IMG/VR virus record: IMGVR_UViG_3300042561_000402
Span: 1-64,000 of that record
DNA: 64,000 bases
Direction: 5' to 3' (one strand)
Source: a virus
Shown here in pieces: positions 27,427 through 59,999 of this stretch (positions are counted from its first letter, which is position 1; every line of letters begins with the position of its first letter). Below the pieces are notes generated by a model. That model saw only the letters and a list, made by a program, of their open reading frames with translations, ran no database searches and was not told the origin of the DNA. The translations under genes and the position numbers were made by a program.

Positions 27427-29003
27427 TCTCCGAAACTACCATCGCTTCGATAGCGGAAAACGTCCGTCTCTCTGAAGTAGCAGGGGATTACTTCCCCGTG
27501 AAAAGGAGGGGCGGGCGGTTCTCCGCGCTATGTCCATTCCATAGGGAAAAGACTCCATCATTCTTCATCAATGATGATAAGAACACCTATAAGTGTTTTG
27601 GATGCGGGGCTGGAGGATCTGTCTTCCGCTTCGTCATGGAGATGGACAAGATCAAATTCCCCGAAGCCGTACGAAAACTTGGGGCCAAGGCTGGGATAGC
27701 CATAGAAGAGCAGGAAAGTGAAGTTGACAAATTACGAAGGGGCTTGCTATCCGTAGTTTACAAAGCTCACCAACAATTTTTCAATTTGCTGCTGGGTGGT
27801 GAAGGGCGCGATACTCGTAGTGCCCTAAAAGTCAGGGGGTTTAATCGGGAAATCTGTGAAGAGTGGAAGATCGGCTTTGCTCCGAATAAGTATACCCTGT
27901 CTGGTAATACCGACGATCACACCCTGTCAGGGTTAGCCTATGAGAACGGGACACTACGTTTTACCAATCGGATTATGTTCGGGATAGCTGATGAGGGTGG
28001 GACTCTGGTCGGATTTAGTGGGAGAACTACCGACAACCACCCCGCCAAGTATCTTAATAGCCCAGAATCATCTATTTTTCACAAGGGTAAACTACTGTAT
28101 GGGCTGGATAAGGCCAAGAGATCCATCATAGACAGGGGGGTTACAGTCATAGTCGAGGGGCAGATTGATACTATCAGATGCCACTTGGCTGGAATTACTA
28201 ATACTGTTGCCCCATTAGGCACAGGCTTTACCGCATTCCATGGCTCCACTATTAGACGCTTATGCGAGGAGGCTGTCTTGGTGTTCGACGGCGATAAGGC
28301 GGGGCGAGAGGCGTCATTTAAAGCGTTTGCAGGGCTGGCAAGCCTCGGTGTCAGAGTTAAGTCTGTCATGCTGCCAGACGGAGATCCCGATTCCTTCTTG
28401 ATTTCGGGCGGAGATCTTGCGAGTCTTATATCGAATGCCAAGCTTTACCCCGAAGCATTGGCTGAATCTCTGGATAAAAACTCAATTGAGGACAAACAAA
28501 TTGCCATGGGCAAGGTCGGGCAAGCCCTATCAGTCTTGGAAGATGGAATTGAGCGTGATGAATTGGCTAATCGTTGTGCGAAACTACTTGGCATCAAGCC
28601 ATCACAGTTAAAGAAACAAGCCGCCATGGGCGGTGGACACATAGCCCTCCCCACCGAAACCCGCTACGGAGAGCAAAAAGGAGAGGCTTGGAAACAGTTG
28701 GTAGCTCATCTTCTTCTTTGTGGGAAGGAGTCTGCGAACACCTACAATTGGAAGTTGTTGTCGGACGGCGACATCCAGACCATCATGGACTCGGACTACG
28801 AGGCAGGGAACCCCTCCTCCATAGCCAAAATTATATCCCAATTGGACAACAATGCGGAGGCCGCGATCCAAGGTATATCCCATCAGGATATAGCCGATCT
28901 GGATATACATAGTATATACAAGTCCATGTTGGAAGCGGAGATCAAGCGCCGCACCTCCATAGTTGACTTGATGCCCCTTTTGGATACGCTCAAATCTCTG
29001 TGA
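27423..29003 (+). CDS. dnaG: DNA primase, DnaG type
   Basis: The 526-residue protein makes RNA primers for the replication fork opened by the phage DnaB. The CHC2-type zinc domain has C37-x2-H40 (LCPFHREKTPSF) and C58-x2-C61 (CFGCGAGG). The TOPRIM core has VIVEGQID with E245 and LVFDGDKAG with D289 and D291. The C-terminal helicase-interaction part is short and not assignable. Length is somewhat below E. coli DnaG. The start is a TTG at 27423 overlapping the previous TGA, and its stop overlaps the next GTG. Confidence 0.95.
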   Translation: MISETTIASIAENVRLSEVAGDYFPVKRRGGRFSALCPFHREKTPSFFINDDKNTYKCFGCGAGGSVFRFVMEMDKIKFPEAVRKLGAKAGIAIEEQESEVDKLRRGLLSVVYKAHQQFFNLLLGGEGRDTRSALKVRGFNREICEEWKIGFAPNKYTLSGNTDDHTLSGLAYENGTLRFTNRIMFGIADEGGTLVGFSGRTTDNHPAKYLNSPESSIFHKGKLLYGLDKAKRSIIDRGVTVIVEGQIDTIRCHLAGITNTVAPLGTGFTAFHGSTIRRLCEEAVLVFDGDKAGREASFKAFAGLASLGVRVKSVMLPDGDPDSFLISGGDLASLISNAKLYPEALAESLDKNSIEDKQIAMGKVGQALSVLEDGIERDELANRCAKLLGIKPSQLKKQAAMGGGHIALPTETRYGEQKGEAWKQLVAHLLLCGKESANTYNWKLLSDGDIQTIMDSDYEAGNPSSIAKIISQLDNNAEAAIQGISHQDIADLDIHSIYKSMLEAEIKRRTSIVDLMPLLDTLKSL

Positions 29004-29662
29004 AAAACATCAAAGAACTTCCGAACGGCATCTGGGTGGTATCAAATGATACCCACATCTCCAAGTGGGTTGAGGAACACAACAGTCTCAAATGCGATCC
29101 TCATTTGTTTCAATGGTTGGAACCTCGGCTATCGGGTTGCAAAAGAGTTTGGGATGTGGGGGCAAACATTGGAGACCATACCAGATTCTATCTGGATGCT
29201 GGCCTTATGGTTATAGCTTTTGAGCCCAATCCTAATGCCTACGAATGCCTTAAGCGTAATTGCGGAGAGGCTATCTGCAAGAATGTGGCCGCATCCGATG
29301 TGCGCGGAACTATCAAAATGAATCTGTTGGATAATGTTGGGGCTTCCCACATTGACGATAATGGACAGGTCGAGGTGGACGCTATTCCGCTGGACGAACT
29401 GGAAGAGGCTATTTGGCCACCAGACTTTATCAAGATTGATGTGGAGGGATTTGAGTCCAAGGCTTTGGCTGGCATGGAGGGGATTATCCAAAAGAAAAAG
29501 CCGAAGCTGTTTGTCGAGTTTAACCATGGTGCGCTGGAACGCTGCGGCTCAAACCCGAAGCAACTCAAGGATCAGATCGAATCCTACGGCTATACCAACT
29601 TTGAAATCTATCCACCCAAAGCAACCCCCGAAGACCTTCAATATGACTACTTCTGCTATTAA
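29000..29662 (+). CDS. FkbM-family methyltransferase
   Basis: The 220-residue protein is an S-adenosylmethionine-dependent FkbM methyltransferase: motif I VWDVGANIGDHT (50-61), a cofactor-ribose acid in AFEPNPNAY (E75) and the family motif FIKIDVEGFE (143-152). FkbM enzymes often O-methylate sugars. It starts with a GTG overlapping the primase stop and overlaps the next glycosyltransferase, forming a three-gene sugar-modification set. Confidence 0.8.
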   Translation: MKNIKELPNGIWVVSNDTHISKWVEEHNSLKCDPHLFQWLEPRLSGCKRVWDVGANIGDHTRFYLDAGLMVIAFEPNPNAYECLKRNCGEAICKNVAASDVRGTIKMNLLDNVGASHIDDNGQVEVDAIPLDELEEAIWPPDFIKIDVEGFESKALAGMEGIIQKKKPKLFVEFNHGALERCGSNPKQLKDQIESYGYTNFEIYPPKATPEDLQYDYFCY

Positions 29663-30347
29663 ACCACACATCCTGATTAGAACCTACAACAGGGATCGTG
29701 ACTGGTTGGAGTATTGTCTTAAGTCAATTCAGAAGCACAATCCAGAATTGGGACTAACTGTGGTTGCGCCAGAAGGTCATGATGTTGGCTGTCCGTGTGC
29801 CCACGTTTCTCCCGTACACTTGGATGGTTACATTGACCAGCAATATACCAAGCTTCGCGCCATCTCTTACATACCAGAGGATGCCACCCATGTAATCCAT
29901 ATTGATTCGGATTGCATTGTGCTGGGCAACTTGATGGATCTTTTTATTGATGGTAAGCCAATCCTGCTCAAGACTCCTTGGCATCTCATTGATAATGACG
30001 CCAAGGTTTGGCACGGGGTTACCCAGCACTACCTCGGATTTAGCCCAGAATATGAATACATGCGGAGAATGCCGCTTATATATCCTTCCCGTATATACAA
30101 CGATCTTACAATCTATTTGGAGGAACGCCATGGATTCATGTCAAAATGGTTCCACAAGATTGATGGGCGAAGACTCAGTGAGTTTAACTTGCTCGGAGCA
30201 TACGCTGATCGGTTTATGCCAGAGGAGTTTCACTGGGTTGATACATCAAAAGAACCCCTGCCACCTCTTGTGGTGAAGCAGGGATGGAGTTGGGGCGGGT
30301 TTGCTGCCATGAAAGACGAGTGGGACATGCTCTATGCTAAATCCTGA
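29643..30347 (+). CDS. glycosyltransferase (GT-A, DxD)
   Basis: The 234-residue protein, from the ATG at 29643 (MTTSAIKPHILIRTYNRD), begins with the typical nucleotide-sugar-binding beta-alpha unit. It carries a DxD motif, HIDSD with D88 and D90. C-terminal acidic and Trp-rich segments (KQGWSWGGF) may hold the acceptor. An upstream frame extending to 29334 is a shadow of the methyltransferase gene. It overlaps genes on both sides, so it is tightly coupled. Confidence 0.75.
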   Translation: MTTSAIKPHILIRTYNRDRDWLEYCLKSIQKHNPELGLTVVAPEGHDVGCPCAHVSPVHLDGYIDQQYTKLRAISYIPEDATHVIHIDSDCIVLGNLMDLFIDGKPILLKTPWHLIDNDAKVWHGVTQHYLGFSPEYEYMRRMPLIYPSRIYNDLTIYLEERHGFMSKWFHKIDGRRLSEFNLLGAYADRFMPEEFHWVDTSKEPLPPLVVKQGWSWGGFAAMKDEWDMLYAKS

Positions 30348-31122
30348 CCTGTTTCGCCGCGCTCCTGAATGCCGTTCCGCCCCACCAGAGGGTTATGTAT
30401 GGACTCCGCCGCCACTAAATCTGGCGTTTCTTTTCTGTTCTCGCGACTATGGGCAGGCTATTCGTGTATTAACTTGGGCCAAGGATCTTGGAAAACAACC
30501 CAACGAAATCCACTTCATTACGGACGAGGGACTGGATTGTAGTGCTGCTGTAGAGATTGCGAAAAAAGTATTTAAGAAATGCGTAGTGCATTACATTCCG
30601 CTCTGTCACATGCCTTGGCCAGCATGCAATAACCATGCCTTTGCCGAAACCTGTAAGATTATGGCAGGACTTGGCAAGCCTTGGTTGCTTTGGGAAACGG
30701 ACATGATCCCATCCCAGCCTGATTGGGTTGCTCGCTTGGAGGGGGAGTATCAGAAGGCTAAACGTCCCTTCATGGGAGCTTGGGTGGACTGCTTTGACCA
30801 CATCAACGGAGGGGCAATCTATCCTCCCGATGTCATCTCATGGTGTCCAAAATTCTTTAGCCAGCCAGCCACTTCTCAAATGGCTTTTGATTGTGCGATA
30901 GCCCCAGAGATCATCTGGTTTTCGCATCCAGCCAACCACATGATGCCAAACATCTTTTATTCAAGATCCAATGGGCGACCAGCAGGACTTATCCCTAATC
31001 CTACAGTGTGGAATCCCAAGGTGTTTGAATGGGTGCATACCCATGACGCTTGTATTATTCACCGTGATAAGCGCGGAGAATGTATTGATTTTCTCCGTGA
31101 GAAATTCGGTGTTCGCAAATAG
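30334..31122 (+). CDS. glycosyltransferase-like protein
   Basis: The 262-residue protein has a DxD-like PWLLWETDMIP (W120-E121-T-D123), then WVARLEGEY and NGGAIYPPDV, the same order as the gene at 8558. A Cys/His-rich region, HYIPLCHMPWPACNNH, lies before the active-site strand. It is the last gene of the plus-strand region and converges with the giant gene, leaving only 6 bp between the stops and no visible terminator. Sugar and acceptor unknown. Confidence 0.7.
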   Translation: MLNPDLFRRAPECRSAPPEGYVWTPPPLNLAFLFCSRDYGQAIRVLTWAKDLGKQPNEIHFITDEGLDCSAAVEIAKKVFKKCVVHYIPLCHMPWPACNNHAFAETCKIMAGLGKPWLLWETDMIPSQPDWVARLEGEYQKAKRPFMGAWVDCFDHINGGAIYPPDVISWCPKFFSQPATSQMAFDCAIAPEIIWFSHPANHMMPNIFYSRSNGRPAGLIPNPTVWNPKVFEWVHTHDACIIHRDKRGECIDFLREKFGVRK

Positions 31123-40100: not shown

Positions 40101-41799
40101 TACCTCCCAAGGTGGTTACAATAGCGGTAGACAATCCAGAGAGAGCGGCGGGTAGCTGGGCCTCTTTGACGGCTTCCGCTCTGGCTTGAACTGGATCCAT
40201 TCCACCATCGATTTTCTCTTTTTCAAGTTGCTGAAAGGCCGAAGAAAGAACCCCACCATAAGACTGGGCAAATGCCATGCCAACCGAAGATCCAAATCCA
40301 ATATTGCTGACAGTCTTTGGCTTAAGGCCAAGCTTGCTGCCACCAAGACCAATTGCACTTCCGAAGCCAATTTGTGTAACAATTTGAGGAACAACAGCCG
40401 CGAGTTCTGCGGCAAATGTTGGCCCACCAATCTCCTGTGAGATGCGGCTTAATCTTTGGATCTCGTCACTTGTTTTAGTTGCGGAATCCAAAAACGGATC
40501 GGCAAAATCTTGCGCCCCTAGCGTGAGCGCTGTTCCGCCAACAATGGCCTGACCAGCCTCAAGCAGTCCAAGGGCTCCCTTGGTAAGACCAATACCGATT
40601 TGTGGAAAAGTTTTACCAACATAATCCAACCAGTCTTCGTTGCGATTTTTCCATTGGGATATCTGCTGTTTTGGAGAAACGTTTTCTAAGTTATTCTCTT
40701 TAACGAAGTCATTGAATTCGCTGACTTGTTGCAGAAATGGCAACTCAACCTTTGCAGCCTCTTCTTGAAGTTGTGGGATAGATGCGATGGTCTTTTGCTT
40801 CTTGGCATCAGAGATATCGAGGGCATTGATCTCCGCTTTAATTCCTTCAGCGTCCCACACATGGAGCGGGGACACTCGGATCTCGTTGTTGACGATGCCA
40901 ACTTTGGCAGCTTCAGTTCTTCCAGTGCCATCCTCTGTTCCCAGCTTCCAAGTATCCGCTGGCCCCTCTTTAACTTTTTGGCCTCTGGCCAAATCAAGCA
41001 TTGTTAGTGCTTCGCGATACAGTTTTCCTTTTTCGGGATCGTTCTGATTTAAAACGGATTCCTGTAATTCACGATACTCTTCAGGGCTACCCAAATATTC
41101 TATAAGGTATGTTCCAACATCCATCCCCTTTTCAGCCGCCTGTCCAATCACATCGGCAGCATTATTAATCTTGGTTTCACCCTCCTTGAAGCGATCAACA
41201 AATTGATTGTTTAGGGATTTCTCTTCGGCGCTATACTTAGCCTGAATGGATGCCATTGCTTCTTTGCGCTTCTGGTCATCTTCGATAGCGCGGGCTGCTT
41301 CGTATTCCTGCTCGGCGCGGCCATCCAATTCATATAGAGCGTTAGCTCCCTCATCCCCAAAAATCCCACTACCCCTGCGATCTTCGATGTAATCGATACG
41401 GGCCTGTTTTTGATCGGCAAAATATTTATCGTAAGCTGGTTGAAGATCCTTAAGCTTGGAAGCATCATCACCTAATTGAGCCTGAGACCTAATCATGGAC
41501 TGCCATTGATTGGTCATTTCAACCTCTTGCTCTGGAGTGCGTTCTGGGGACTCTGCCAGACTTTTATATTTCTCAGAGGCCGACTGAAGAGCAACAGATC
41601 TTTCTTTGTAGCCTTTGGCTACTTCGTCATATTGCTGAAGAATCGAAGGGGTGGACGGAGCATTTGCCGACTCTCCAATTACAGAGTCATTAGCGCCCCA
41701 ATCGTCTTGTTGATCCTCAACTACGAGGTCGTTTTCGCCCCAAGTCTCCGAATCGTTTTCACCCACCACGGGATCGTTAATGCCCCATTCTTCATCCAT
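31129..41799 (-). CDS. giant polyvalent virion protein with two zincin motifs and ART domain
   Basis: This 3556-residue protein is likely carried in the virion and injected. In order: an acidic N-terminus with three WGxND repeats (up to about residue 45); a long coiled region; hydrophobic Gly/Ala-rich segments (about 400-700) that could cross or disturb membranes; a Pro/Glu-rich linker (about 1100-1320); a first zincin, LFVHEVGHTIT (about 1385); a second, GIHEFWHGL (about 1714); and an ADP-ribosyltransferase-like domain with LLFHGTTHIF and GKGYYLTN (about 1940-1975), closing with VFNSSQIKSA. Long coiled-coil stretches follow, and an LPD38-like C-terminal part (about 3380-3440). It has the size of the N4 virion RNA polymerase, but no polymerase motif was seen. 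Confidence 0.9.
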   Translation of the reverse strand: MDEEWGINDPVVGENDSETWGENDLVVEDQQDDWGANDSVIGESANAPSTPSILQQYDEVAKGYKERSVALQSASEKYKSLAESPERTPEQEVEMTNQWQSMIRSQAQLGDDASKLKDLQPAYDKYFADQKQARIDYIEDRRGSGIFGDEGANALYELDGRAEQEYEAARAIEDDQKRKEAMASIQAKYSAEEKSLNNQFVDRFKEGETKINNAADVIGQAAEKGMDVGTYLIEYLGSPEEYRELQESVLNQNDPEKGKLYREALTMLDLARGQKVKEGPADTWKLGTEDGTGRTEAAKVGIVNNEIRVSPLHVWDAEGIKAEINALDISDAKKQKTIASIPQLQEEAAKVELPFLQQVSEFNDFVKENNLENVSPKQQISQWKNRNEDWLDYVGKTFPQIGIGLTKGALGLLEAGQAIVGGTALTLGAQDFADPFLDSATKTSDEIQRLSRISQEIGGPTFAAELAAVVPQIVTQIGFGSAIGLGGSKLGLKPKTVSNIGFGSSVGMAFAQSYGGVLSSAFQQLEKEKIDGGMDPVQARAEAVKEAQLPAALSGLSTAIVTTLGGKRGAEGVFREGVDGIKAKLNTAAFKGELDAFVPNIFKGMRNEGYEEFADQLAQGIIEQFSFNPELATSDIVNNAFKALVIGGITGGTVEGLKYGYDYMRAPSQMARREESMASMRQSISDVEKEISEAAASSPIGAEFQREYDVTQPSDMATNLGARSVDRNRMTTLQEERKQLTELLEDDGISRVARNQLEAKLAAADFSYYNEILVPSRINVVNEQIVDQLDALGATQQTKDSVTALAKIANGLGAESLTGRERVAVGITSVGEGRFLPSKKNPMVEINEQGVATVTEAGRLMAENVGMVPLVRMIGLSETTQAKAAEIQRIAEEIAAQRAQTEAKETAESEEAKRYGPASAEALKQQAEGQPPAGDGNTQAKIAQLLKEQEEAQRQALEALQKKETGAGIEEGFKQMGAGIVDSYYEAVLKSLQEKGEVPSPEKNSSVGKAWDRVKGKMEPEEFVKQLRINSDDPSRIVVPETGVAAVTPPAVGEVTPPTEPAQPEARPTIDPETLNPRGKQAVKILTSIGVDEETAALVASSYQDEAGEMGAEEWRDFVRAKFEENGGVIPAQMRYSEDPEYYQLAFNVAPEEAAQMVESAKAENQRMAQDELQQNKQWRRKDEQATQPQRGIAQAQPEAKAVPVAAGEVPPSPAIEGRGVPATAPKTAQVALPPAAPPAEPPVAAAPAQAPLAGALTEEQAQNFVKAAERERARKPPVDVKGKTKYGVNSVAPKVVIGKSARAALINVSRLNLSKIAQSDPNEIMMQDVAAILAELQMPILDSEEVVSLSSLGRKGRAGRFTLSDGRRVIAIPSTLKTPVELFVHEVGHTITADEIRKYAPRRFTQNRGRDYLDTLNKAINDTNTPEPIRKLFSLYISTIDQLGITEQYFGADGVAGSPKADTSRAMARRLQAQGTLRKDLNWVQLYGLANIEEFVSQTFAEPDFRELLKTLKDPTQPSRTLWTAFVEAIQKILQLPKGSMAAGVIEASVDIGMYTVPAKKAGVAAPSPATTAEADMAPEPENSLGYDITNVVEDIKQGKTDGPLKAVNAVVKQSTELRDRIKRESQKRQRPRVRGQAPIIERIARERSSGKISDETAKALTDFVNTIRPDAIGDTAISIRGAGNVSNFDFGDSLVSFYLTQDKPELGARVGIHEFWHGLSRFLPKEELGKMSKDYTGALSEYINENPWFLAFVGRYSLTPEQYEDYKIFNPKEAETKLAPVIDSQGNITKYQIIYDNESYRYIMLDEWIAENMTDLVREKQAAPDTFMGKLAKIFWEFLDMIQAKLGLDAYESFYQLVTDPKKKLQLYRIDSVARPFQIYQPQTYAYSEESANLIRYNSLAPEPEVREATKKHIDAAASNNVEEAQRLTDEVAKSRNYNSENLLFHGTTHIFNVFKKDRANIENDFGKGYYLTNTEADAQTNYAGEGPDLTNRIERLAEQLQSNEDMDEDVAKEKAREILSGGGQRIMRVYVRLENPFNVGGPNETFLDYEAPYDETNEEYGEPTGTLVDFLDQLRSIIERYSEDSAVDADKAVGNILEAAFDQGGINASDLVSILKQEDSGIMWASDENGDLASSEIIREAIEAAGFDGIVDNLVNQKFGSQKRIGKAMAGMGADTVHTIVFNSSQIKSADAITRDDQDNVIPLSERFLAEEEDVRYAPEEEFEISPEQVEDQIDGTPEASTIKVMGAAFKLANEQSAAEGSTEGTLPLETITNAWMNSGRDTQTLEDAIIRYTNLSPEVATTLAEAISKQLDIQRGIAEISDMASKKRAEDEIEERAYSFARRVKEDLPPSVARKIETVYEVLRNDVSVQEANEVMRGLSLDEAIAATKDMENGVSMPVRSMMAQIVNRRLMDYRKNTKKSGRNEDYKASVEAHVDFFNWTNEYFKELGQGVQAISRFMDLGADGILRKLKKDTDKAVAKKIKERKSKIDQIKKDIEDGDNAAFNAAVNANKSSIDQAANNAAKQEAKKLTIEEQAQKLAQKAAKKVTGEAVRPRKADPLSELVNGHLRKYNKDFLADARAMGISQETAQKIDESAQKLRDSRVATKSEKERFDAMQEERMRVKRQLARENKYIYGERPTIWENYQSMFSDRLARRLMRDPQKKVPPSLLLFTDRLTENLLGFIPESERQASTPKSFQAMVEDALNNKEKYQEAFNKALRDISAKVEELETEASETEEGNAAYFQALAAEEFLQKLAPKIQDFPVSEKLVSRFVGQKTKNLGISLIAEYNRWYRSSRRDRGEIDAKLQQRLIADLNIPLADARRLSQSIIKDFREKADARRQKALERFKKPQEKSDPIKETPLKKFFELTNMGALTDQDAYEIMANRFDLPTWDQKFADKIYEMAQDIQDMDDGLQRRLMTQNLMVEIARQKGFNLADLGSGFIYANILSSPDTHMVNIVDTLINNFANAFADAVSIKDFSRLRGVVNGYRKGIFEAVEVMKTGRRINMPSFEEKAPLIAELVRFGKKGGVKLASKEGANSVAQSILESKPAKFLNAAKWVGRLLEAQDALNFSASVEGQRYAEAARIATEEGLKGRSKQKRIHEILNVGDGAYQKALQQAEAEGYMGTEAKFRAIEIQDEKIPADIKDRSFERGLRDVYRNMPVGVAGQLAATVNSAFEKIDNPWVRNALKLTVSPFIITPVNLFNKWLDWSPWGYKRLFMGTGGWYGVDSKYYVAPYAKGTPEWRAQLFKANSSVMVMGLLGGLIKAGIMTLNGRGPSDEEERKQWSDDGNKPYTFRFGNGPQISFVYSPWAVPLSVMANMVNWNKYNAKDDASYAYRLMASVSFVPAIVMELPFFQGAADLIDLFNMKSNTDMVKRFEKFAEGKTGMLFPNFLRYIDRLFDPQQYDSQGVKGIIIDQMPFARRLGGPKMNMFGEPIGEGKPLLDRLAGRFVAFPKPSRESRILAKYDAYPYMPNPRRAEALIDGEKAPMTEEQYGEFAIGVGQEFKKWLNSNYDPDAEVSEQALERGKKRISKRLSEIRARWVRKVSTY

Positions 41800-47819: not shown

Positions 47820-50800
47820 ATGGCAGAATTTCCTCCACGGGGCAAATCCGAGTACCCACCTTTAGGCAAGGCGTTTGTTGCCGAGTATCGCTATGGTGAT
47901 CGGGATTTTCCCGTTGTCCACATCAAAAAAGACCCAAGAGTCGATAATTACAAGGCTCCAGATGTTGGCGAGCCTTGTCCTGATAAGCGATTTCCAGACC
48001 ATGCCTTTATCCAAACCCTACCCACAAACTCTGACGAAAGAGTCTTGTGGGTCTATGAAAAACTGGATGGGCCGATTATCAGTGGAAAAATCCTTGATAA
48101 GGATGGGAATGTCGCCACCTTAACCCGTCAACCCGTTGTTTCGGGGAGCCCTGTAGATCAAGGGTTTAAGGTTCTTTCAAGTGCCATCAACCCCGAAAAC
48201 AAAGCATTTGGGACAAAGGAAACCGTCACAGTTGACGAGTTTCCCGTTCTTCGGGGCACCCAAATTGATCCCCGTTATGGGGTTGCCTTGGAATATACCA
48301 AAGAATTGGTGGACGCCGCAACTGCGGTTGGTGGGGTTGATGGTCTGGAATCTGTAGAGATCGAGCCCAAGGATCAGTGGCGGTCTTGGAAACTTACCAC
48401 AAAGCTCGCGCAACTTCCACAAGATCAGGTTTGGTATGGTTATCGCAAGGAGTCGCTTCCCGATGTTTTGGTTAATCTTTCAATCGTTGGCACGGAAACA
48501 TTTCAGCCTATTCCAACTTGGCGGGTTGCGCCCGACATGGCCCTTAAGGCTAGATTTACTAGGAAGTTTAGCATGGGGCCACCGCCAGACCCATCCCCAG
48601 CCCTTTCCCCTAAATACTGGGCGGAACCGTTTTATATTGCTGTAGAATATTTGCGAGAGTCTGCAAGTGAATCCGAAACAACTTCAAGTTCAACATCTTC
48701 TGGTACAACTAGCTCCACCAATTCATCAACTCAAAGCTCTACTTCTAGCGGTACGCAGTCTGGAACCAATACTTCTACACAGACTTCCACTAATAGCTCA
48801 ACACAATCTTCTACAAGCAGTGGAACCCAAAGTTCTACCAATAGTTCTACCAGCAGTTCTACCAATAGCTCTACGCAATCCTCAACCAATAGTTCAACGC
48901 AAAGTTCTACGGGGTCTTCAACGTCAAGCTCCACAAACAGTGGAACACAAAGTTCTACCAGTAGTGGCACCCAGAGTTCCACTAATTCTTCCACATCCTC
49001 GTCTACTAATTCGTCTACATCGTCTTCCACATCTTCTAGTACAACTAGCTCGACCAATAGTTCCACGCAGTCGTCCACTGGATCTTCCACCTCTTCTTCT
49101 ACTAACTCGTCCACCCAATCTTCAACATCCAGCGGAACTACCAGTTCAACCAATTCATCAACATCATCTAGCACCTCTAGTGGAACCACTAGCTCTACAA
49201 ATTCTGGAACTAATAGCTCAACCAACAGTTCCACAAATTCCTCCACTTCTAGCTCTACAAATTCTGGCACAACCAGTTCCACTAACTCGTCCACGAATAG
49301 CTCTACATCATCATCAACAAATAGCTCCACAACTAGCTCAACCAACTCTTCCACCAACTCCTCTACCACCTCATCAACGAACAGCGGAACCAATAGTTCA
49401 ACTAACTCATCCACCAATAGCTCAACAACATCTTCGACTAATAGTTCTACACAGAGTTCCACCAACTCTTCTACTACATCTTCTACAAACAGTGGCACTG
49501 CCAGTTCTACAAATAGCGGAACACAGAGTTCGACATCCAGCGGAACAAACAGTGCTACAAATTCATCTACAAGCAGCGGAACTACCAGTGGGACATCGTC
49601 ATCAACAAGCAGTTCAACCAATTCATCCACCACATCCTCTACGAACAGTGGCACAACAAGCTCCACTAATAGTTCCACTAACAGTTCTACCACAAGCTCA
49701 ACCTCAAGCTCTACCAATTCTGGAACACAATCATCCACCAACTCCTCTACATCATCGTCCACCAATAGTGGAACCACAAGCTCCACTTCAGGCGGGACAA
49801 CATCATCAACCAACAGTGGAACGCAAAGCTCCACAACATCTGGAACAAATGAATCAACTAGCAACTCTGAAGGTAATGGATCAGACTCGTCAGCAGAATC
49901 AAATCAAGGAGCAGTAACACTAGATGACCCAAATACGAACAGGGTTCAATTTTTTGAATCAACAGTAATTGGAAGCTCCACAACCTCTGGAACAAATTCT
50001 GGAACATCAAGCTCCACTAACAGTGGAACCCAAAGCTCAACCTCAAGTGGAACATCGTCATCAACCAATAGCGGCACTCAAAGTTCAACATCTTCTGGTA
50101 CAACAAGTTCCACTAACTCGGGAACACAATCGTCCACATCAAGCGGGACAAGCACTTCTACATCTTCTGGTACGCAATCATCCACTAATAGCGGAACGTC
50201 ATCGTCTACATCAAGTGGAACCAACAGTTCTACATCAAGCTCTACAACATCTTCCACAACAAGCTCTACGTCCTCTGGAACCACCAGTTCCACCAATAGC
50301 TCTACATCTAGCTCGACTAATAGTGGAACAACGTCTTCAACTAATAGTGGTACGTCAAGTTCAACCTCTAGCTCTACCTCCTCCTCGACCAATAGCGGAA
50401 CAACCAGTGGAACAACTTCTTCAACATCTTCTGGAACAACATCGTCAACCAATAGCGGAACTAGCAGTGGCACAACTAGCTCTACCTCTTCAGGAACCAG
50501 TACTTCAACTAACTCTGGCACCACCTCGTCTACAGCATCTTCAACAAGTTCGGGTACAACATCATCTACTAATAGCGGAACATCATCTTCAACACAGAGT
50601 TCAACATCTTCGGGCACCACATCTTCTACTAATAGTGGAACCACAAGCTCCACCAATTCGTCTACACAGTCTTCGACGGCCAGCGGTACATCTAGCTCTA
50701 CAAATAGTTCCACTTCAAGCTCCACTGGTTCTGGAACACAAAGCTCCACTTCAAGCTCCACCTCTAGCTCAACTGGTTCTGGAACACAGTCATCCACAAG

Positions 50801-51380
50801 TTCCTCAACTCAGTCATCCACAAGTAGCGGAACCACCAGTTCTACAAATTCATCAACAACCAGTTCCACTAATTCTTCCACATCCTCCTCCACGAATAGT
50901 TCAACGCAAAGTTCTACATCTTCTTCGACAAGTAGTTCGACAGGAAGCGGGACAACATCATCCACTTCTTCGGGGACGCAAACATCAACCTCTTCAGGAA
51001 CTAATAGCGCCACCAATAGCTCGACATCCTCGTCCACTGGTAACGGAACCACTAGCTCAACGTCTTCGTCAACAACAAGTTCCACAAATTCTGGAACAAA
51101 CACATCAACCTCTAGCGGGACATCTTCTTCTACGAACGAGTCCACTTCGCAGAACTCAACCATATCTCGCGGTAAGTCCATCTTTAATTTGACAATACCC
51201 AAGTGCCTGCGTAGTAATATCAATGTAACATTACCAAGCGGTGACTCATTTACCATTCCAGCAACCAGACAAACTGATCTTAGTTGGGGAGAATATGTGG
51301 AAGTAGCCCGTCAAAGCGAACATTGGAAACAGGGTATTTGGATTACCGAAATAACAGAAATATATTTACCAGAGCTTTAA
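47820..51380 (+). CDS. mucin-like Ser/Thr tetrapeptide-repeat virion protein
   Basis: The 1186-residue protein has an ordinary globular N-terminal part of about 283 residues (for example VWYGYRKESLPDVLVNLSIV). About 200 copies of a tetrapeptide S-[SG]-T-[NQSTGA] follow in two blocks (about 284-677 and 718-1107). Between them is an acidic insert, NRVQFFESTVIG. A C-terminal folded part (about 1115-1186) ends EITEIYLPEL. The repeats hold almost no charge or hydrophobic residue, like O-glycosylated mucin stalks. The two genes that follow at 2 and 23 bp spacing look like DUF3431 glycan-related proteins. It sits in a virion module and may be a fibre or capsid decoration; glycosylation is inference. 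Confidence 0.85.
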   Translation: MAEFPPRGKSEYPPLGKAFVAEYRYGDRDFPVVHIKKDPRVDNYKAPDVGEPCPDKRFPDHAFIQTLPTNSDERVLWVYEKLDGPIISGKILDKDGNVATLTRQPVVSGSPVDQGFKVLSSAINPENKAFGTKETVTVDEFPVLRGTQIDPRYGVALEYTKELVDAATAVGGVDGLESVEIEPKDQWRSWKLTTKLAQLPQDQVWYGYRKESLPDVLVNLSIVGTETFQPIPTWRVAPDMALKARFTRKFSMGPPPDPSPALSPKYWAEPFYIAVEYLRESASESETTSSSTSSGTTSSTNSSTQSSTSSGTQSGTNTSTQTSTNSSTQSSTSSGTQSSTNSSTSSSTNSSTQSSTNSSTQSSTGSSTSSSTNSGTQSSTSSGTQSSTNSSTSSSTNSSTSSSTSSSTTSSTNSSTQSSTGSSTSSSTNSSTQSSTSSGTTSSTNSSTSSSTSSGTTSSTNSGTNSSTNSSTNSSTSSSTNSGTTSSTNSSTNSSTSSSTNSSTTSSTNSSTNSSTTSSTNSGTNSSTNSSTNSSTTSSTNSSTQSSTNSSTTSSTNSGTASSTNSGTQSSTSSGTNSATNSSTSSGTTSGTSSSTSSSTNSSTTSSTNSGTTSSTNSSTNSSTTSSTSSSTNSGTQSSTNSSTSSSTNSGTTSSTSGGTTSSTNSGTQSSTTSGTNESTSNSEGNGSDSSAESNQGAVTLDDPNTNRVQFFESTVIGSSTTSGTNSGTSSSTNSGTQSSTSSGTSSSTNSGTQSSTSSGTTSSTNSGTQSSTSSGTSTSTSSGTQSSTNSGTSSSTSSGTNSSTSSSTTSSTTSSTSSGTTSSTNSSTSSSTNSGTTSSTNSGTSSSTSSSTSSSTNSGTTSGTTSSTSSGTTSSTNSGTSSGTTSSTSSGTSTSTNSGTTSSTASSTSSGTTSSTNSGTSSSTQSSTSSGTTSSTNSGTTSSTNSSTQSSTASGTSSSTNSSTSSSTGSGTQSSTSSSTSSSTGSGTQSSTSSSTQSSTSSGTTSSTNSSTTSSTNSSTSSSTNSSTQSSTSSSTSSSTGSGTTSSTSSGTQTSTSSGTNSATNSSTSSSTGNGTTSSTSSSTTSSTNSGTNTSTSSGTSSSTNESTSQNSTISRGKSIFNLTIPKCLRSNINVTLPSGDSFTIPATRQTDLSWGEYVEVARQSEHWKQGIWITEITEIYLPEL
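48673..51140 (+). repeat. 12-bp coding repeats of the mucin-like gene
   Basis: About 200 in-frame 12-bp units encode S-[SG]-T-x. The Ser and Thr codons vary freely (TCA, TCT, TCC, TCG, AGC, AGT; ACA, ACC, ACT, ACG), so neighbouring units are often identical in protein but different in DNA. All frames on both strands stay open for long stretches, which creates long false antisense frames. Confidence 0.95.
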
Positions 51381-51381
51381 T

Positions 51382-52026
51382 ATGGAAAAATCAAACAAAA
51401 AGACAGCAGATAGCCCAAAGTATCAAATTCTTATTGCAAGACACAACGAGAAAATTGATTATCTTAACTATTTGCCAAAGAGGGAAAATAGAAATTATGA
51501 AGTAATCGTTAGTAACAGTGGCGACCCAAAAGACCAATTCTCTTGTGACAGAACAATTGTACGCGAGAACGTGGGAAGAGAGGCTGGACACTATTTAAAT
51601 TTCATGGCCTCAGAGTACGAAAACATGGCCCCAACAGTTGTTTTTATTCAAGCTGGATGTTTCGCGCATTTTAATACCATTGAACCAATACTAGAGCTTT
51701 TTTATGGGGCTCCCGAATTCCCATTCCCAATGAGTTTTTTGGGCACGGAATCTGTAGTTGGAATTGAGAGTGTTCCAAGATGGTCTGAGGCCGAGCATAT
51801 ACTTAAAACAGCTTGGCAAGACGCAAGCTGGAACAAACCAATCAAAGGCAAGCCTTGGGTAATTGGAGGCGGGGCACAGTTTTACGTCAAAAAAGAAATT
51901 CTTATTAAAAGACCTCCAGAACATTATTTAAGAGCCATTGAATGCGCCAGAGATCCAGACTCAAAACTCGCACATGTTCTAGAGTTTCATTGGCCCAACA
52001 TGTTTGATCTTTCCTGCCTTCATTAG
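51382..52026 (+). CDS. DUF3431-like protein, putative glycosylation gene 1
   Basis: The 214-residue protein matches the DUF3431 layout: NVGREAGHYL (63-72), then VVFIQAGCFAHF (86-97), then GGGAQFYVKKEILI and RPPEHYLRAIE. DUF3431 proteins are predicted glycosyltransferase-like enzymes; the activity is not proven for all members. It starts 2 bp after the mucin-like gene and is paralogous to the next gene, so glycosylating the Ser/Thr repeats is the natural hypothesis. Confidence 0.65.
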   Translation: MEKSNKKTADSPKYQILIARHNEKIDYLNYLPKRENRNYEVIVSNSGDPKDQFSCDRTIVRENVGREAGHYLNFMASEYENMAPTVVFIQAGCFAHFNTIEPILELFYGAPEFPFPMSFLGTESVVGIESVPRWSEAEHILKTAWQDASWNKPIKGKPWVIGGGAQFYVKKEILIKRPPEHYLRAIECARDPDSKLAHVLEFHWPNMFDLSCLH

Positions 52027-52046
52027 AAAAACACAAAAGCTTAATT

Positions 52047-52685
52047 ATGGAACAAAAAAAATACAACGTACTGCTTGCGACACACTCAGAAGATCTTGAT
52101 TGGTTGAGATATCTTCCCAAAGAAAGAGATTACAACATTATTGTTTCCAACAGCAATGGGGTGAAAGATGTCTTTAATGCCGATTTGGTTCTAAATAGGG
52201 AGAATTACGGTCGGGAAGCAGGCCACTACTTTCATTACATGGTTGAGTTTTATGAAAGCTTGCCAGAAATAACCATGTTTGTGCAGGGTGATCCTTGGCC
52301 TCATGCTGCTGCTGGAAATTATACAATTTCGCTAATGGAGGTTCTTTTTGGAACGCCCGAATTCGTGTGGCCAATTACTTATCTTGGAAAGCAGTATTCA
52401 CCAAGCAAGCTCCTCTCTGGAGAGGATTCAAGACAGGCAAAAGCGATTAGGGCTGGAATCGGGGATCTTCCCATAGGACAAGGAATACCAATCAGTATTG
52501 GTGCCAATTTTTACGCAAGGAAGGATATCATCCTTTCTCGCCCAAAAGAAGTTTATCAAAGCTTTTTGAAATACGCAGCAGACAAAACGATATACCCAGA
52601 TGATCCTTATTACACGTTGGCACACGATCTAGAAGGCGTTTGGGGCGGCGTGTTCCAACATTCATCTGGAAAACGTGCCATCTAA
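52047..52685 (+). CDS. DUF3431-like protein, putative glycosylation gene 2
   Basis: The 212-residue protein is a paralogue of the preceding one: NYGREAGHYF (53-62), MFVQGDPWPH (77-86) and IGANFYARKDIIL near 150-162. Its motifs match DUF3431 better than those of gene 1, keeping Q-G-D-P. Its TAA overlaps the next start as TAATG. The role in repeat-protein glycosylation is inferred from adjacency. Confidence 0.7.
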   Translation: MEQKKYNVLLATHSEDLDWLRYLPKERDYNIIVSNSNGVKDVFNADLVLNRENYGREAGHYFHYMVEFYESLPEITMFVQGDPWPHAAAGNYTISLMEVLFGTPEFVWPITYLGKQYSPSKLLSGEDSRQAKAIRAGIGDLPIGQGIPISIGANFYARKDIILSRPKEVYQSFLKYAADKTIYPDDPYYTLAHDLEGVWGGVFQHSSGKRAI

Positions 52686-54565
52686 TGAGCGACATTCTTT
52701 CTGGTGGCGTAATTGATGATTCAACATCAGGCCCAATTCCATCCAATCTGGATGATCGGAAAAGGGACATTATTGCCGAACAGAAAGAAGCCCAGAGGCA
52801 AGACGCTATAGGTGGAACAGAAGTTCCACCAACCCCAAGTCAGCCGCAACAAATTCCAGAGCCACCACAGGTAGCACCACCGCTACCCGTAATACCATCG
52901 TTTGAATTTAACATCCCTGCATCGTTGGCAGAGGAAACAAGAGAGGTTGCCAGACAAGCAACCATTGACGTTATTAAAAACGTCACAATTAACGGCCAAG
53001 GCCCATCCATTGAAGGCTCCACAATCTCCTTCAACATACCTCAAGAAAGGCCAGCAAATGAGGTTTTTGTTTTTCAGGGGATCGCCATACCACAATCGCA
53101 ACTTTCTCAAGTAACTCAACCACAAATCCAGCAACAGCCAACGATTCAATTAGATAGAAATCAAGAAATACAATCTGTTACAGTATCTTCTCCGCAGGCA
53201 GTACGGGTTACAACGGAGCAAACTCAAGAACCCCAAGTAACAATTCAAGAAAGTCGCAGTGCAGAAATCAAAGCCATTCCTGCTGCCACAACTCAGGAAG
53301 AGGCTGTACAGCCAGAAATTCAAAAAATATCGACTGCCCCCCTTGTCGAAGCGGAATCCATACCTTTACAGGAACCCACTGTCCCACAATCACAGTCAGC
53401 CGAACCAAGAAGTGAGTCCATTGGGGAAAGGCAAGTTAGGGAAAACAATGAAAGGGCAGCAAGAAACAGAGAAATAAGGAGTGCCCTCGGATTGGGTGAA
53501 GCCTCGCCTTTTGATGAACCTCCAGAAGTTGTACCCAGAGAAACAGTTCCTATCGGGCAAAAACAAGACATAGAGAACAATGAAAGAGCCGAAAGAAACA
53601 GAGAAATAAGGAGCAATCTTGGACTTGGCAATGAATCACCATTAGATAAATACGAGGGAGTTTCTTTTGGAGAAAGGCAAGATGCGGAACTTTCTGAAAG
53701 AAGAGAAAGAGATAAAAAAATAAGAAGAGATCTTGGATTGGGTGAAATTTCTCCCTTTGACGAAGAAACGGATGTAGCCAAAGGCTTTAAAGCAGCCGAA
53801 GAAAGATACCGCCAAAGAATAGAAAGTGGCCCCAACTTTGACCGCGAATCAGATGTGCGTCAAAAAGGCGAAAGATATAGTGATTTTAAAGAGAGGCAAG
53901 AAGCCCTAAAAGAAGAACGCTCCGAACGCGCCGAAGCAGTAAGAGAACGGGCCGAACTCCAAAAAAGACTTAAAGATGGTGGAATTGCAGAAACCCCTAG
54001 TGGCATGGTTCCAGTTGCTCTTACGAGGGCAGATGGACAAAAAAGGATTCTGGCCTACCTCTCTTCGGAATTTGTTGGTGTTGTGGAGGGTGGTGAATCC
54101 CAAGATAGAATAACGAGCTTACCAGCAGAAGGTGACTATTATGAAGCTGGTGGAGGCGGTGCCCCTGATCATCCTTGGAAAATAAGAATTAGAACCATAC
54201 CAGAAACAGAGCCCCCAGAATATGAATATATGGTTGTAAGTGGAAAACTTTATACTGGTATAGGGGGTTGGGACAGCGTTGATGTTGAAGGTCTCAATGA
54301 ATGGAAATCGGCGCAAGAAGGTAACGTGATTCTTTTTGGAGAAGTTACAAATGGAGAATGTTCAGCCGCCTCAATAAAATTTGAAGAAACACTCCCAGAT
54401 CGTATTAAATACAATGATTTGGATCAGGAAGAATTCAATACTGTGATTGGATATCTATTTACATATGAAGGAACGTTTTCCGTTAAACAAGATGCGTTCC
54501 AAAATTTCACATTGACACAATTCTGTGTTGATTCAAAGTCAGCAATATACCCAATTTCGACTTAA
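52685..54565 (+). CDS. putative virion protein with tandem coiled repeats
   Basis: The 626-residue protein from ATG 52685 has a Pro/Gln-rich start. Three tandem repeats of about 40 residues follow near residues 240-380: ENNERAARNREIRSALGLGE, ENNERAERNREIRSNLGLGN and LSERRERDKKIRRDLGLGE. A charged helix comes next (KERQEALKEERSERAEAVRE), and a beta-rich C-terminal domain with YMVVSGKLYTGIGGWDSV. It lies between the DUF3431 pair and another structural gene with TAATG overlaps on both sides. A fibre or spike with a trimeric stalk is plausible. Confidence 0.7.
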   Translation: MSDILSGGVIDDSTSGPIPSNLDDRKRDIIAEQKEAQRQDAIGGTEVPPTPSQPQQIPEPPQVAPPLPVIPSFEFNIPASLAEETREVARQATIDVIKNVTINGQGPSIEGSTISFNIPQERPANEVFVFQGIAIPQSQLSQVTQPQIQQQPTIQLDRNQEIQSVTVSSPQAVRVTTEQTQEPQVTIQESRSAEIKAIPAATTQEEAVQPEIQKISTAPLVEAESIPLQEPTVPQSQSAEPRSESIGERQVRENNERAARNREIRSALGLGEASPFDEPPEVVPRETVPIGQKQDIENNERAERNREIRSNLGLGNESPLDKYEGVSFGERQDAELSERRERDKKIRRDLGLGEISPFDEETDVAKGFKAAEERYRQRIESGPNFDRESDVRQKGERYSDFKERQEALKEERSERAEAVRERAELQKRLKDGGIAETPSGMVPVALTRADGQKRILAYLSSEFVGVVEGGESQDRITSLPAEGDYYEAGGGGAPDHPWKIRIRTIPETEPPEYEYMVVSGKLYTGIGGWDSVDVEGLNEWKSAQEGNVILFGEVTNGECSAASIKFEETLPDRIKYNDLDQEEFNTVIGYLFTYEGTFSVKQDAFQNFTLTQFCVDSKSAIYPIST

Positions 54566-55401
54566 TGGGCAAAACTTCACATATTAAATATTTTAATGAT
54601 TGTTCCACGGTAGCACCTTATCCGCCAAAGGGCACAGGTGGCACCATAGTTGGAACTGGGGATTATGAATATTATTGTATAAAACTACCAATTCCTGCTT
54701 GTCTTAGACTTTTTTGGGGTGTTAAAAAGTGGAAATTATCTTATGATTATGATTTTCATATACTAATAGATGATGAATCCACAGATGATTCAAACGGATA
54801 TTTGCTTGGAAGCGAGATAACTGGTTCTGGAAGTGTTGAACTTGTAAGTGGGGATGGATATAGTACGTCTAATCTAAATTATATACATCTTCTTTCAGAA
54901 AAAGAAACTGATCTTTTCTGCAAAAACATAGAGCCAGAAACTAACGTATTGGATTATGGTTGGGATTATCCAGTAACCTACACCCGCAAGATCATTAAAA
55001 ACGAAGGAACGGAAGAAGAACCAGAAATCGTCACAACAGTTGACGAGCTTCAAGACAATTTATACGCAGCATTTGGCAGCGGTGGGGGTAGCCAGCAAGA
55101 GTTTTTTTCAAGGTTTTCAGAAACAGAAGATCCTTCAAATGAATTTTGGGTTAGCTTGATATTAACTCTAAGCGTTGGATTTAGTGCTGGGTATAGCCAA
55201 TTTGACACACCAACCTTCAATATAAGCAGAAGTACAACAGCCACGCTTAAGTTTCTTAACTACCAAATTCCAATTGAATTAGGAGCCACGAGCCTTCCAA
55301 GCTACGTTTTAAAATCTGAGGTTTCTAATGTTATTTTAGAACCCTATGAATGGTGGACATATGATGGAAAATATGATTCAGAAACTGGGCTTGAAAATTA
55401 A
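54565..55401 (+). CDS. putative virion protein
   Basis: A 278-residue, beta-rich, aromatic protein (KWKLSYDYDFHILIDD, TATLKFLNYQIPIELG), acidic overall. It is the last plus-strand gene of this block, coupled by TAATG to the repeat protein. It converges with the minus-strand genes with an overlap of 4 bp. No family was recognised. Confidence 0.65.
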   Translation: MGKTSHIKYFNDCSTVAPYPPKGTGGTIVGTGDYEYYCIKLPIPACLRLFWGVKKWKLSYDYDFHILIDDESTDDSNGYLLGSEITGSGSVELVSGDGYSTSNLNYIHLLSEKETDLFCKNIEPETNVLDYGWDYPVTYTRKIIKNEGTEEEPEIVTTVDELQDNLYAAFGSGGGSQQEFFSRFSETEDPSNEFWVSLILTLSVGFSAGYSQFDTPTFNISRSTTATLKFLNYQIPIELGATSLPSYVLKSEVSNVILEPYEWWTYDGKYDSETGLEN

Positions 55402-59324: not shown

Positions 59325-59999
59325 CTACACGTTGGTTGGTGTCAAAATTGGAACTGGTGCATATTCTCCATTATCTTCCCACAAGCTTGCTTGCCATGGA
59401 AATTCAACGTCATCAGATGCAAGATAGGCCACTTCTGCAGCTTCGCCTGAATATATAACCCAAGAACCACCGTTCCATTCAATATAATTTGATTCATAAA
59501 TATATTTGGCCTTACCTTCGTTTTCTCCGTCTAAAACATAAGTTGCATTAACGGATTCTATTCCAGCGCCAGAAACAATTACTGCATTGTAGGTTGTTGG
59601 TGTGGCTATGCTGGTAATAATTGAAGCCACCTGATAGCGCCAAGGCCAGTTGATATAGGTGGCTAGGTTTGCGGGGTTACCCGTGTCTCCGCGATAGGCG
59701 GCGGCGATATGCCCCAAAGCCTGCTTCTCACTCCAGTCAATAGTCCCAAGGCTCGACCCCGAAACCGCATCATAGATGGCCTTCCACACATATTGTTTAG
59801 GAAGAGAGATGTAATCTGCTTCGCTTCTTGGTGCGCCTGCGGCTACGGCGATCTTGGCCCAGAGATAGCGTTCTGGGAGGGTGACGTAGTTAGCGACCGA
59901 CCCCGAACCCAACTCATTTACCAGCCATTGGGCAAGCATGTACCTTCGGGGCTGATCCGCCGCCGAAGCAAACACCGCATCTAAAGTAGGGAGAGCCAT
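59325..59999 (-). CDS. putative structural protein with YxxLPxxYxW repeats
   Basis: The 224-residue protein contains three related segments, YVTLPERYLWAKIAVA, YISLPKQYVWKAIYDA and YINWPWRYQVASIITS, spaced about 30-60 residues. It also has a beta-rich end (SGEAAEVAYLASDDVEFPWQ). Small phage proteins with the YISLPxxYxW pattern appear between head and tail genes. The exact role, perhaps an adaptor, is not known. Confidence 0.6.
   Translation of the reverse strand: MALPTLDAVFASAADQPRRYMLAQWLVNELGSGSVANYVTLPERYLWAKIAVAAGAPRSEADYISLPKQYVWKAIYDAVSGSSLGTIDWSEKQALGHIAAAYRGDTGNPANLATYINWPWRYQVASIITSIATPTTYNAVIVSGAGIESVNATYVLDGENEGKAKYIYESNYIEWNGGSWVIYSGEAAEVAYLASDDVEFPWQASLWEDNGEYAPVPILTPTNV

What the first reader, a model, noticed from the sequence alone, without database searches (positions are those of the whole stretch)
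47820..52685. Mucin-like phage protein coupled to two DUF3431 genes
Seen: about 200 Ser/Thr tetrapeptides with almost no other residue type, in one 1186-residue protein, followed at 2 and 23 bp by two paralogous DUF3431-like genes. Known: Ser/Thr stalks without charge or hydrophobic residues are typical O-glycosylation substrates, and DUF3431 is predicted to be glycosyltransferase-like. Inference: the phage makes a glycosylated stalk on its virion, perhaps to bind or hide in mucus or capsules, with its own glycosylation pair.
Basis: partly seen in the sequence, partly recalled or inferred. Interest (0 to 1): 0.85.

Follow-up and report, generated by a model that had tools for sequence, protein, structure and literature searches.

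The report
Mirror-armed polar hairpin fibre of phages
The serine/threonine-repeat protein looks like a very long hairpin fibre whose two featureless-looking arms match each other almost residue for residue, and in some of these uncultured phages a probable sugar-adding enzyme is encoded right beside it; if true, such "low-complexity" protein carries a hidden pairing code.

Summary
In detail: 47820-51380 encodes 1186 aa with 194 [NQTSG]-S-[SG]-T tetrads (76% Ser/Thr), followed at 1 and 20 bp by two PF11913 (DUF3431) genes. The mucin reading is only half right. In 25-odd related uncultured phages the stalk is always split by a short conserved linker into two arms of equal length to within one residue (offset -8 ±1 in 22 of 26 proteins, arms 130-784 aa; the four misfits carry long exact DNA repeats and look mis-assembled). 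At the antiparallel register this implies, residues co-vary across the arms (N faces G, T faces T, S faces S; 0 of 2000 shuffles in each of four proteins), while codons do not. So the stalk is most likely a precisely paired antiparallel hairpin with the linker at the tip, not an unstructured bottlebrush. DUF3431 models as a GT-A glycosyltransferase; in its close clade it sits only directly behind a stalk gene (13/13 contigs) and its types swap between sibling phages, but 19 stalk contigs lack it. Sugar on the stalk is therefore plausible, optional and unproven; the paired hairpin is the main find.

The parts
47820..51380 (+). Stalk protein, 1186 aa
   Evidence: ORF; composition; homologues
47820..48656 (+). 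N-terminal base domain (aa 1-279); ends in the conserved strand PFYIAVEYLR
   Evidence: alignments A1, A5
48657..49883 (+). Arm 1, polar tetrads (aa 280-688)
49908..49949 (+). Conserved linker GAVTLDDPNTNRVQ (aa 697-710), predicted tip/turn; family form GAPLxxDPxTNR
49971..51161 (+). Arm 2, polar tetrads (aa 718-1114), same length as arm 1
51162..51377 (+). C-terminal base domain (KSIFNLTIPKCLR...EHWKQGIWITEITEIYLPEL)
   Evidence: alignment A4, 27 loci
51382..52026 (+). DUF3431 type A, probable GT-A glycosyltransferase
   Evidence: PF11913; tree
52047..52685 (+). DUF3431 type B, probable GT-A glycosyltransferase (modelled)
   Evidence: PF11913; model; fold search
52685..54565 (+). Conserved next gene (MSDILSGG...), directly behind the stalk gene where DUF3431 is absent
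54565..55401 (+). Variable last gene of the stalk operon
29000..29662 (+). FkbM-type methyltransferase (PF05050, E 3e-19), possible glycan methylation
29652..30347 (+). GT-like gene with DxD-like HIDSDC; 63% identical to the C-terminal half of a DUF3431-GT fusion in L051/L052
30334..31122 (+). Second GT-like gene (about 60% identical to its counterpart in L051/L052)

Best explanation
The gene encodes a phage surface fibre built as one very long antiparallel hairpin. The N-terminal domain anchors the chain; arm 1 runs outward; the conserved linker makes the turn at the tip; arm 2 runs back in exact register and the C-terminal domain docks beside the N-terminal one. The arms are probably paired as an extended polar beta ribbon (Thr opposite Thr and Ser opposite Ser on one face; Asn opposite Gly and Gln/Thr/Ser opposite Ser on the other), roughly 140 nm long for the window protein if fully extended (422 residues x 0.33 nm; inference), perhaps several copies bundled. 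In some lineages, this one included, one or two DUF3431 GT-A enzymes made from the same operon probably add sugar to Ser/Thr of the fibre in the cytoplasm before assembly. Shown: equal arms, register coupling, selection on amino acids rather than codons, GT-A model, gene linkage. Inferred: beta structure, virion location, sugar transfer, role in contact with host or surroundings.
For: Length rule: (VEY to linker) minus (linker to PKCL) = -8 +/-1 in 22 of 26 proteins with arm 1 from 130 to 784 aa; r = 0.99999 in the 14 without long exact repeats. Siblings window and L024 differ by exactly +156 and +156 aa. Coupling: pooled mutual information at the antiparallel register z = 9.5 and 8.0; that offset is rank 1 of 125 in window, L024, L026, L031, L034, L077 and of 555-1279 in a wide scan of the long ones; N:G pairs 43 vs 18.0 +/-2.8 in shuffles (window), 26 vs 6.8 +/-2.0 (L034), 0/2000 reach it; kept in every quarter of the arm. 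Ser codon class and Thr third base are not significantly coupled (p 0.11, 0.06) and RNA complementarity is not raised. The implied turn falls inside the linker (GAPL|VGDP). DUF3431: model pLDDT 81, top folds all GT-A enzymes; 13/13 contigs of its close clade directly behind a stalk gene; types A/B/C swap between siblings.
Against: Coupling is not seen in L032, L036, L038, L041, L045, L050, L079, where the repeat is very uniform or irregular, though the length rule holds there. Linkers of L045 and L048 were placed by eye. No virion proteomics; no cultured relative. DUF3431 is absent beside 19 stalk genes and lacks a DxD motif; distant DUF3431 genes have no stalk neighbour.
Confidence: 0.62

Rival explanations
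1. One reading: a mucin-like, unstructured, heavily O-glycosylated stalk made by a dedicated stalk-plus-DUF3431 pair, to bind or hide in mucus or capsule.
For: 76% Ser/Thr; DUF3431 GT-A model; tight linkage in the close clade; sugar cassette in the window.
Against: An unstructured bottlebrush needs no equal arms and no cross-arm N:G coupling; 19 stalk contigs have no DUF3431; stalks of the same family can be Q/S or N/S repeats (L077, L061).
Confidence: 0.13
2. Paired hairpin fibre as in the best explanation, but DUF3431 acts on something else (a host surface glycan or DNA), being merely co-transcribed.
For: Stalk genes occur without DUF3431; distant DUF3431 genes lie beside nucleotide-sugar genes (GLF, FdtA-like) and away from stalks.
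Against: Exclusive slot behind the stalk gene in 13 contigs, with repeated gain or loss (5 changes) and type swapping at that slot.
Confidence: 0.2
3. Equal arms arise from a mutational mechanism (duplication, gene conversion) and not from pairing of the arms.
For: Both arms share the same kind of repeat in most proteins.
Against: Equality within about one residue persists over a six-fold length range and in proteins whose arms differ in repeat type (L077); no codon-level coupling at the register; amino-acid coupling at one register.
Confidence: 0.04
4. The long coding region itself forms an RNA or DNA stem, and the protein pattern is a by-product.
For: None found beyond the mirror layout.
Against: Base complementarity at the register is below the mean of other offsets in window, L024, L026, L031 and near the mean in L034; synonymous codons are scrambled.
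Confidence: 0.01

Closest known systems
SMC/Rad50-type proteins (antiparallel coiled-coil arms with hinge; from general knowledge)
   Same: One chain folds back at a central hinge; two arms of matched length; N- and C-terminal parts meet at the base.
   Different: There the arms are alpha-helical heptads; here low-complexity S/T/N/G/Q repeats; no sequence relation; phage gene.
Serine-rich repeat glycoproteins with GtfA/GtfB (SecA2/Y2 loci; PMC6973325)
   Same: Long Ser/Thr repeat region; two repeat blocks split by a non-repeat piece; glycosyltransferase genes beside it.
   Different: SRRPs have signal peptide, accessory Sec, LPXTG anchor and GtfA/GtfB with DUF1975; here none of these, a phage late operon, DUF3431, and equal arms.
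Mycobacteriophage virion glycosylation (Freeman et al. 2023, read only through PMC12619734 and PMC10877033)
   Same: Phage-encoded glycosyltransferases that modify virion proteins.
   Different: There C-termini of capsid and tail-tube subunits; here a fibre-like stalk protein with a linked DUF3431; no mass-spectrometric proof.
DUF3431 family PF11913
   Same: Both genes score above the curated cut-off.
   Different: Function unassigned in Pfam; only three papers in the library name it, all fungal.
Metal-independent GT-A enzymes (core-2 GnT 3OTK, BoGT6a 4AYJ)
   Same: Fold-search neighbours; GT-A without a DxD motif.
   Different: TM-score about 0.45 and 10% identity: fold-level kinship only.

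Membership tests
DUF3431 (PF11913) | Profile score over curated cut-off | tested here: met
   36.5 and 45.9 bits vs 25; all 15 aligned members match
GT-A glycosyltransferases | GT-A fold | tested here: met
   AF2 model pLDDT 81.3, pTM 0.85; PDB top hits DPMS 9EP0 E 5.8e-4 and core-2 GnT 3OTK 7.5e-4; viral top hit GTA-type E 5e-10, TM 0.64
GT-A glycosyltransferases | DxD metal motif | tested here: not met
   Conserved motifs are NxGREAGHY and Q[AGS]x..H; no invariant DxD; metal-independent GT-A enzymes exist
GT-A glycosyltransferases | Sugar transfer activity | not testable with these tools
   needs an enzyme assay
Serine-rich repeat glycoproteins | Ser/Thr repeat region with linked GT genes | tested here: met
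Serine-rich repeat glycoproteins | Signal peptide, SecA2/Y2 system, cell-wall anchor | tested here: not met
   N-terminus MAEFPPRGKSEYPPLGK... has no hydrophobic signal and C-terminus ...YLPEL no LPXTG (by eye)
Mucin-like unstructured O-glycoprotein stalk | No positional structure in the repeat | tested here: not met
   equal arms and register coupling
Glycosylated phage virion protein | Glycan on a protein of the purified virion | not testable with these tools
   needs mass spectrometry
Antiparallel hairpin-arm protein (SMC-like topology) | Two arms of equal length around a central hinge, paired in register | tested here: met
   (sequence evidence, no structure)
Phage tail/head fibre | Gene in the late structural module of a tailed phage | tested here: met
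   L016: major head protein (phrog_1328, 6e-32) and one small gene directly before the stalk gene; L018: collagen-like tail fibre directly upstream; window has terminase, DnaB, CHAP endolysin
Phage tail/head fibre | Protein present in the virion | not testable with these tools
   no cultured relative, no proteomics

The most novel reading that the evidence does not exclude
A new class of protein fibre: low-complexity Ser/Thr/Asn/Gly/Gln sequence that encodes a hundreds-of-residues-long, register-exact antiparallel beta hairpin through simple facing rules (T:T, S:S, N:G, Q:S), lengthened or shortened in evolution symmetrically on both arms, and decorated with sugar by a swappable glycosyltransferase slot.
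Probability: 0.5. Interest if true: 0.93.

Novelty: categorically new. Interest (0 to 1): 0.85.

Why it matters
Ser/Thr-rich low-complexity tracts are normally read as disordered linkers or glycosylation carpets. Here sequence alone shows a strict, long-range, residue-level pairing in such a tract, repeated over a diverse phage family with no cultured member in 50,697 phage records. It gives a directly testable pairing rule for very long thin fibres, and a natural test case for whether phages glycosylate their fibres with DUF3431, a domain without known function. It also warns that repeat regions should be checked for mirror symmetry before being called disordered. The literature search was limited to an open-access library, so prior description elsewhere cannot be excluded.

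Tried and rejected
Cultured phage relatives of stalk or DUF3431: none (only a weak chance-level hit). GTDB genomes: none with the phage-type DUF3431 or base domain. Known structure for the base domain by sequence: none meaningful. PHROGs for stalk, DUF3431 and partners: nothing. DNA slippage as cause of the repeats: rejected by scrambled codons. RNA stem: rejected. A link between DUF3431 presence and S/T content or periodicity of the stalk: no clear difference. First DUF3431 model from 8 sequences was poor (pLDDT 58.8) and was not used. A parallel instead of antiparallel arrangement: raw mutual information is not a clean comparison (best parallel offset is higher in L031), but N:G facing is highest at the antiparallel register in all six proteins. 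No RNA family in the region.
Full report
What was claimed and what is there. The ORF 47820-51380 (+) is real and encodes 1186 aa. Residues 280-1116 hold S 396, T 243, N 72, G 68, Q 29 and 29 others, with 194 tetrads of the form [NQTSG]-S-[SG]-T. The next two genes, 51382-52026 and 52047-52685, match PF11913 (DUF3431) above the curated cut-off. The window is 64 kb of a 69,898-base IMG/VR record of a tailed phage (terminase, DnaB helicase, endolysin). The repeat is a selected amino-acid pattern, not DNA slippage: the 36 NSST copies have 29 different DNA spellings, and window versus its sibling L004/L024 shows 433 synonymous against 62 non-synonymous codon differences in the stalk (alignment guided by protein, so approximate).

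Relatives. Searches with the N-terminal domain, with DUF3431, with the C-terminal 72 residues and with a wider N-core profile give about 30 uncultured viral contigs whose protein has the same build: N-terminal base domain, polar arm 1, short conserved linker (GAPLxxDPxTNR and variants), polar arm 2, C-terminal base domain ending in EHWKxGIWVTEIxEV. No cultured phage of 50,697 records and no GTDB species genome gave a relative. The repeat type varies: SSTN tetrads, STSTNT, SGSQ, and in L077 and L061 QSQSQ or NSNSN. The gene lies in the late structural region: directly after a major head protein (phrog_1328, E 6e-32) and a small gene in L016, directly after a collagen-like tail fibre in L018.

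Equal arms. Measured between three conserved anchors (VEY at the end of the N-domain, the first residue of the linker motif, PKCL in the C-domain), the two arms differ by -8 ±1 residues in 22 of 26 proteins, while arm 1 ranges from 130 (L041) to 784 residues (L077); window 422/430, its sibling L024 578/586, L034 274/283, L048 282/290, L082 170/178. Without proteins carrying exact DNA repeats of 60 bases or more, r = 0.99999 (n = 14) and no permutation of 20,000 is as tight. The four exceptions, L039, L040, L043, L046, carry exact repeats of 80-190 bases and have near-identical siblings (L045 obeys with -7), so collapsed assembly is the likely reason. Window and L024, 96% identical in the base domain, differ by exactly +156 aa in each arm. 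The linkers of L045 and L048 had to be placed by eye. Some of the 26 are near-copies of each other, so the number of independent cases is about 18.

Cross-arm coupling. If equality means pairing, facing residues should co-vary at one antiparallel register. Counting outward from V of VEY and from P of PKCL, that register is offset +1: pooled mutual information of the two variable tetrad positions is 9.5 and 8.0 standard deviations above the other same-phase offsets. Offset +1 ranks first of 125 in window, L024, L026, L031, L034 and L077 and first of 555, 867 and 1279 offsets in the long ones. The rule is simple: T faces T, S faces S, N faces G, Q mostly faces S. N:G facing pairs number 43 in the window against 18.0 ±2.8 in within-phase shuffles, 20 against 9.3 (L026), 26 against 15.7 (L031), 26 against 6.8 (L034); none of 2000 shuffles reaches the observed value in any of them. 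The excess is present in all four quarters from base to tip. Serine codon class (p 0.11) and threonine third base (p 0.06) are not significantly coupled and RNA complementarity at the register is not raised, so the coupling is at the protein level. The register puts the turn between residues 4 and 5 of the linker motif. Seven proteins show no coupling signal (L032, L036, L038, L041, L045, L050, L079); several of these have nearly uniform repeats, in which coupling cannot show, or irregular ones.

Interpretation of the stalk. The simplest reading is an antiparallel hairpin: base domains together, linker at the tip, arms paired along their whole length. Alternation of a nearly invariant face (S, T) and a variable face (X opposite small Y) suggests a beta ribbon; the hydrophobic strands FYIAVEY and SIFNLTI at the base would start it. 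Extended beta at 0.33 nm per residue gives about 140 nm for the window protein and 43-260 nm over the family.

DUF3431. A 15-sequence alignment gave a confident model (pLDDT 81.3, pTM 0.85). Foldseek against the PDB lists GT-A glycosyltransferases on top (dolichyl-phosphate mannose synthase 9EP0 E 5.8e-4, core-2 GnT 3OTK E 7.5e-4, GlfT2, GT6 enzymes; TM 0.4-0.45) and, among viral models, a GTA-type protein at E 5e-10, TM 0.64, and rhamnan-synthesis-F-like proteins. There is no DxD; conserved instead are NxGREAGHY and a Q[AGS]x..H motif, as could suit a metal-independent GT-A. In the genomes of relatives L009 and L012 a DUF3431 domain is fused to a second GT-like domain in a cassette with a dTDP-sugar epimerase (PF00908, E 3e-67) and methyltransferases; more distant DUF3431 genes sit beside UDP-galactopyranose mutase or FdtA-like genes. 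The window carries the homologous cassette with an FkbM methyltransferase at 29000-31122. A sugar-transferase role is therefore well supported, though not assayed.

Linkage. In its close clade DUF3431 lies -14 to +18 bases behind a stalk gene in 13 of 13 contigs counting the window. In 19 contigs with a visible slot it is missing and, as a rule, the next conserved gene follows directly; for the 16 of these found nothing was found anywhere in the contig. Many of these contigs are fragments and some are near-copies. On the stalk-core tree presence needs five changes. Among close relatives three types, about 40% identical, swap in the same slot: A+B (window, L003, L004), B (L009), C (L005, L012). 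This fits a variable decoration module on a fibre that can do without it. At 25-36% identity most other phage DUF3431 genes have no stalk neighbour (L079/L096, at 36%, is the exception that has one), so the coupling belongs to one clade only.

Verdict. Observation confirmed; interpretation partly supported. The main result is the equal-arm, register-coupled polar hairpin, to my knowledge without precedent; open-access literature searches found none, but that library is incomplete. Glycosylation of the fibre by DUF3431 is plausible, optional and untested.

Noticed in passing
window 31129-41799 (-): 3556-aa protein with an ADP-ribosyltransferase-like polyvalent domain (PF18760, E 2.7e-9); probably an ejected virion protein.
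   Followed up: partly
window 29000-31122 and L051/L052: Sugar cassette beside the giant gene: FkbM methyltransferase and GT-like genes in the window; dTDP-4-dehydrorhamnose 3,5-epimerase, methyltransferases and a DUF3431-GT fusion in relatives.
   Followed up: partly
L004:2008-2805, L005:6451-7248, L009:2723-3505, L012:5574-6347 (-): Extra GT2-like gene next to the head-tail adaptor-like gene, absent in the window.
   Followed up: no
L032:2096-7216: Stalk protein whose base domain is 1308 aa and seems to contain several ~130-aa internal repeats before the usual core.
   Followed up: no
L077:7452-13421: 1989-aa member with QSQSQGQ and STSTGT blocks; arms 784/792, the longest found.
   Followed up: partly
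window 52685-54565 and 54565-55401: Genes behind DUF3431: conserved N-terminus with variable C-terminus, then a highly variable gene; looks like an exchangeable tip or adhesin module.
   Followed up: no
window 59325-59999 (-): Gene with a conserved 124-aa N-terminus and unrelated C-terminal parts in relatives.
   Followed up: no
L039, L040, L043, L046: Exact DNA tandem repeats inside stalk genes; copy number differs between otherwise near-identical contigs, probably collapsed in assembly.
   Followed up: partly
arm coupling at offset +5, pooled proteins: A second, weaker coupling peak one tetrad from the main register (z 4.5, one phase only), perhaps a contact between chains.
   Followed up: no
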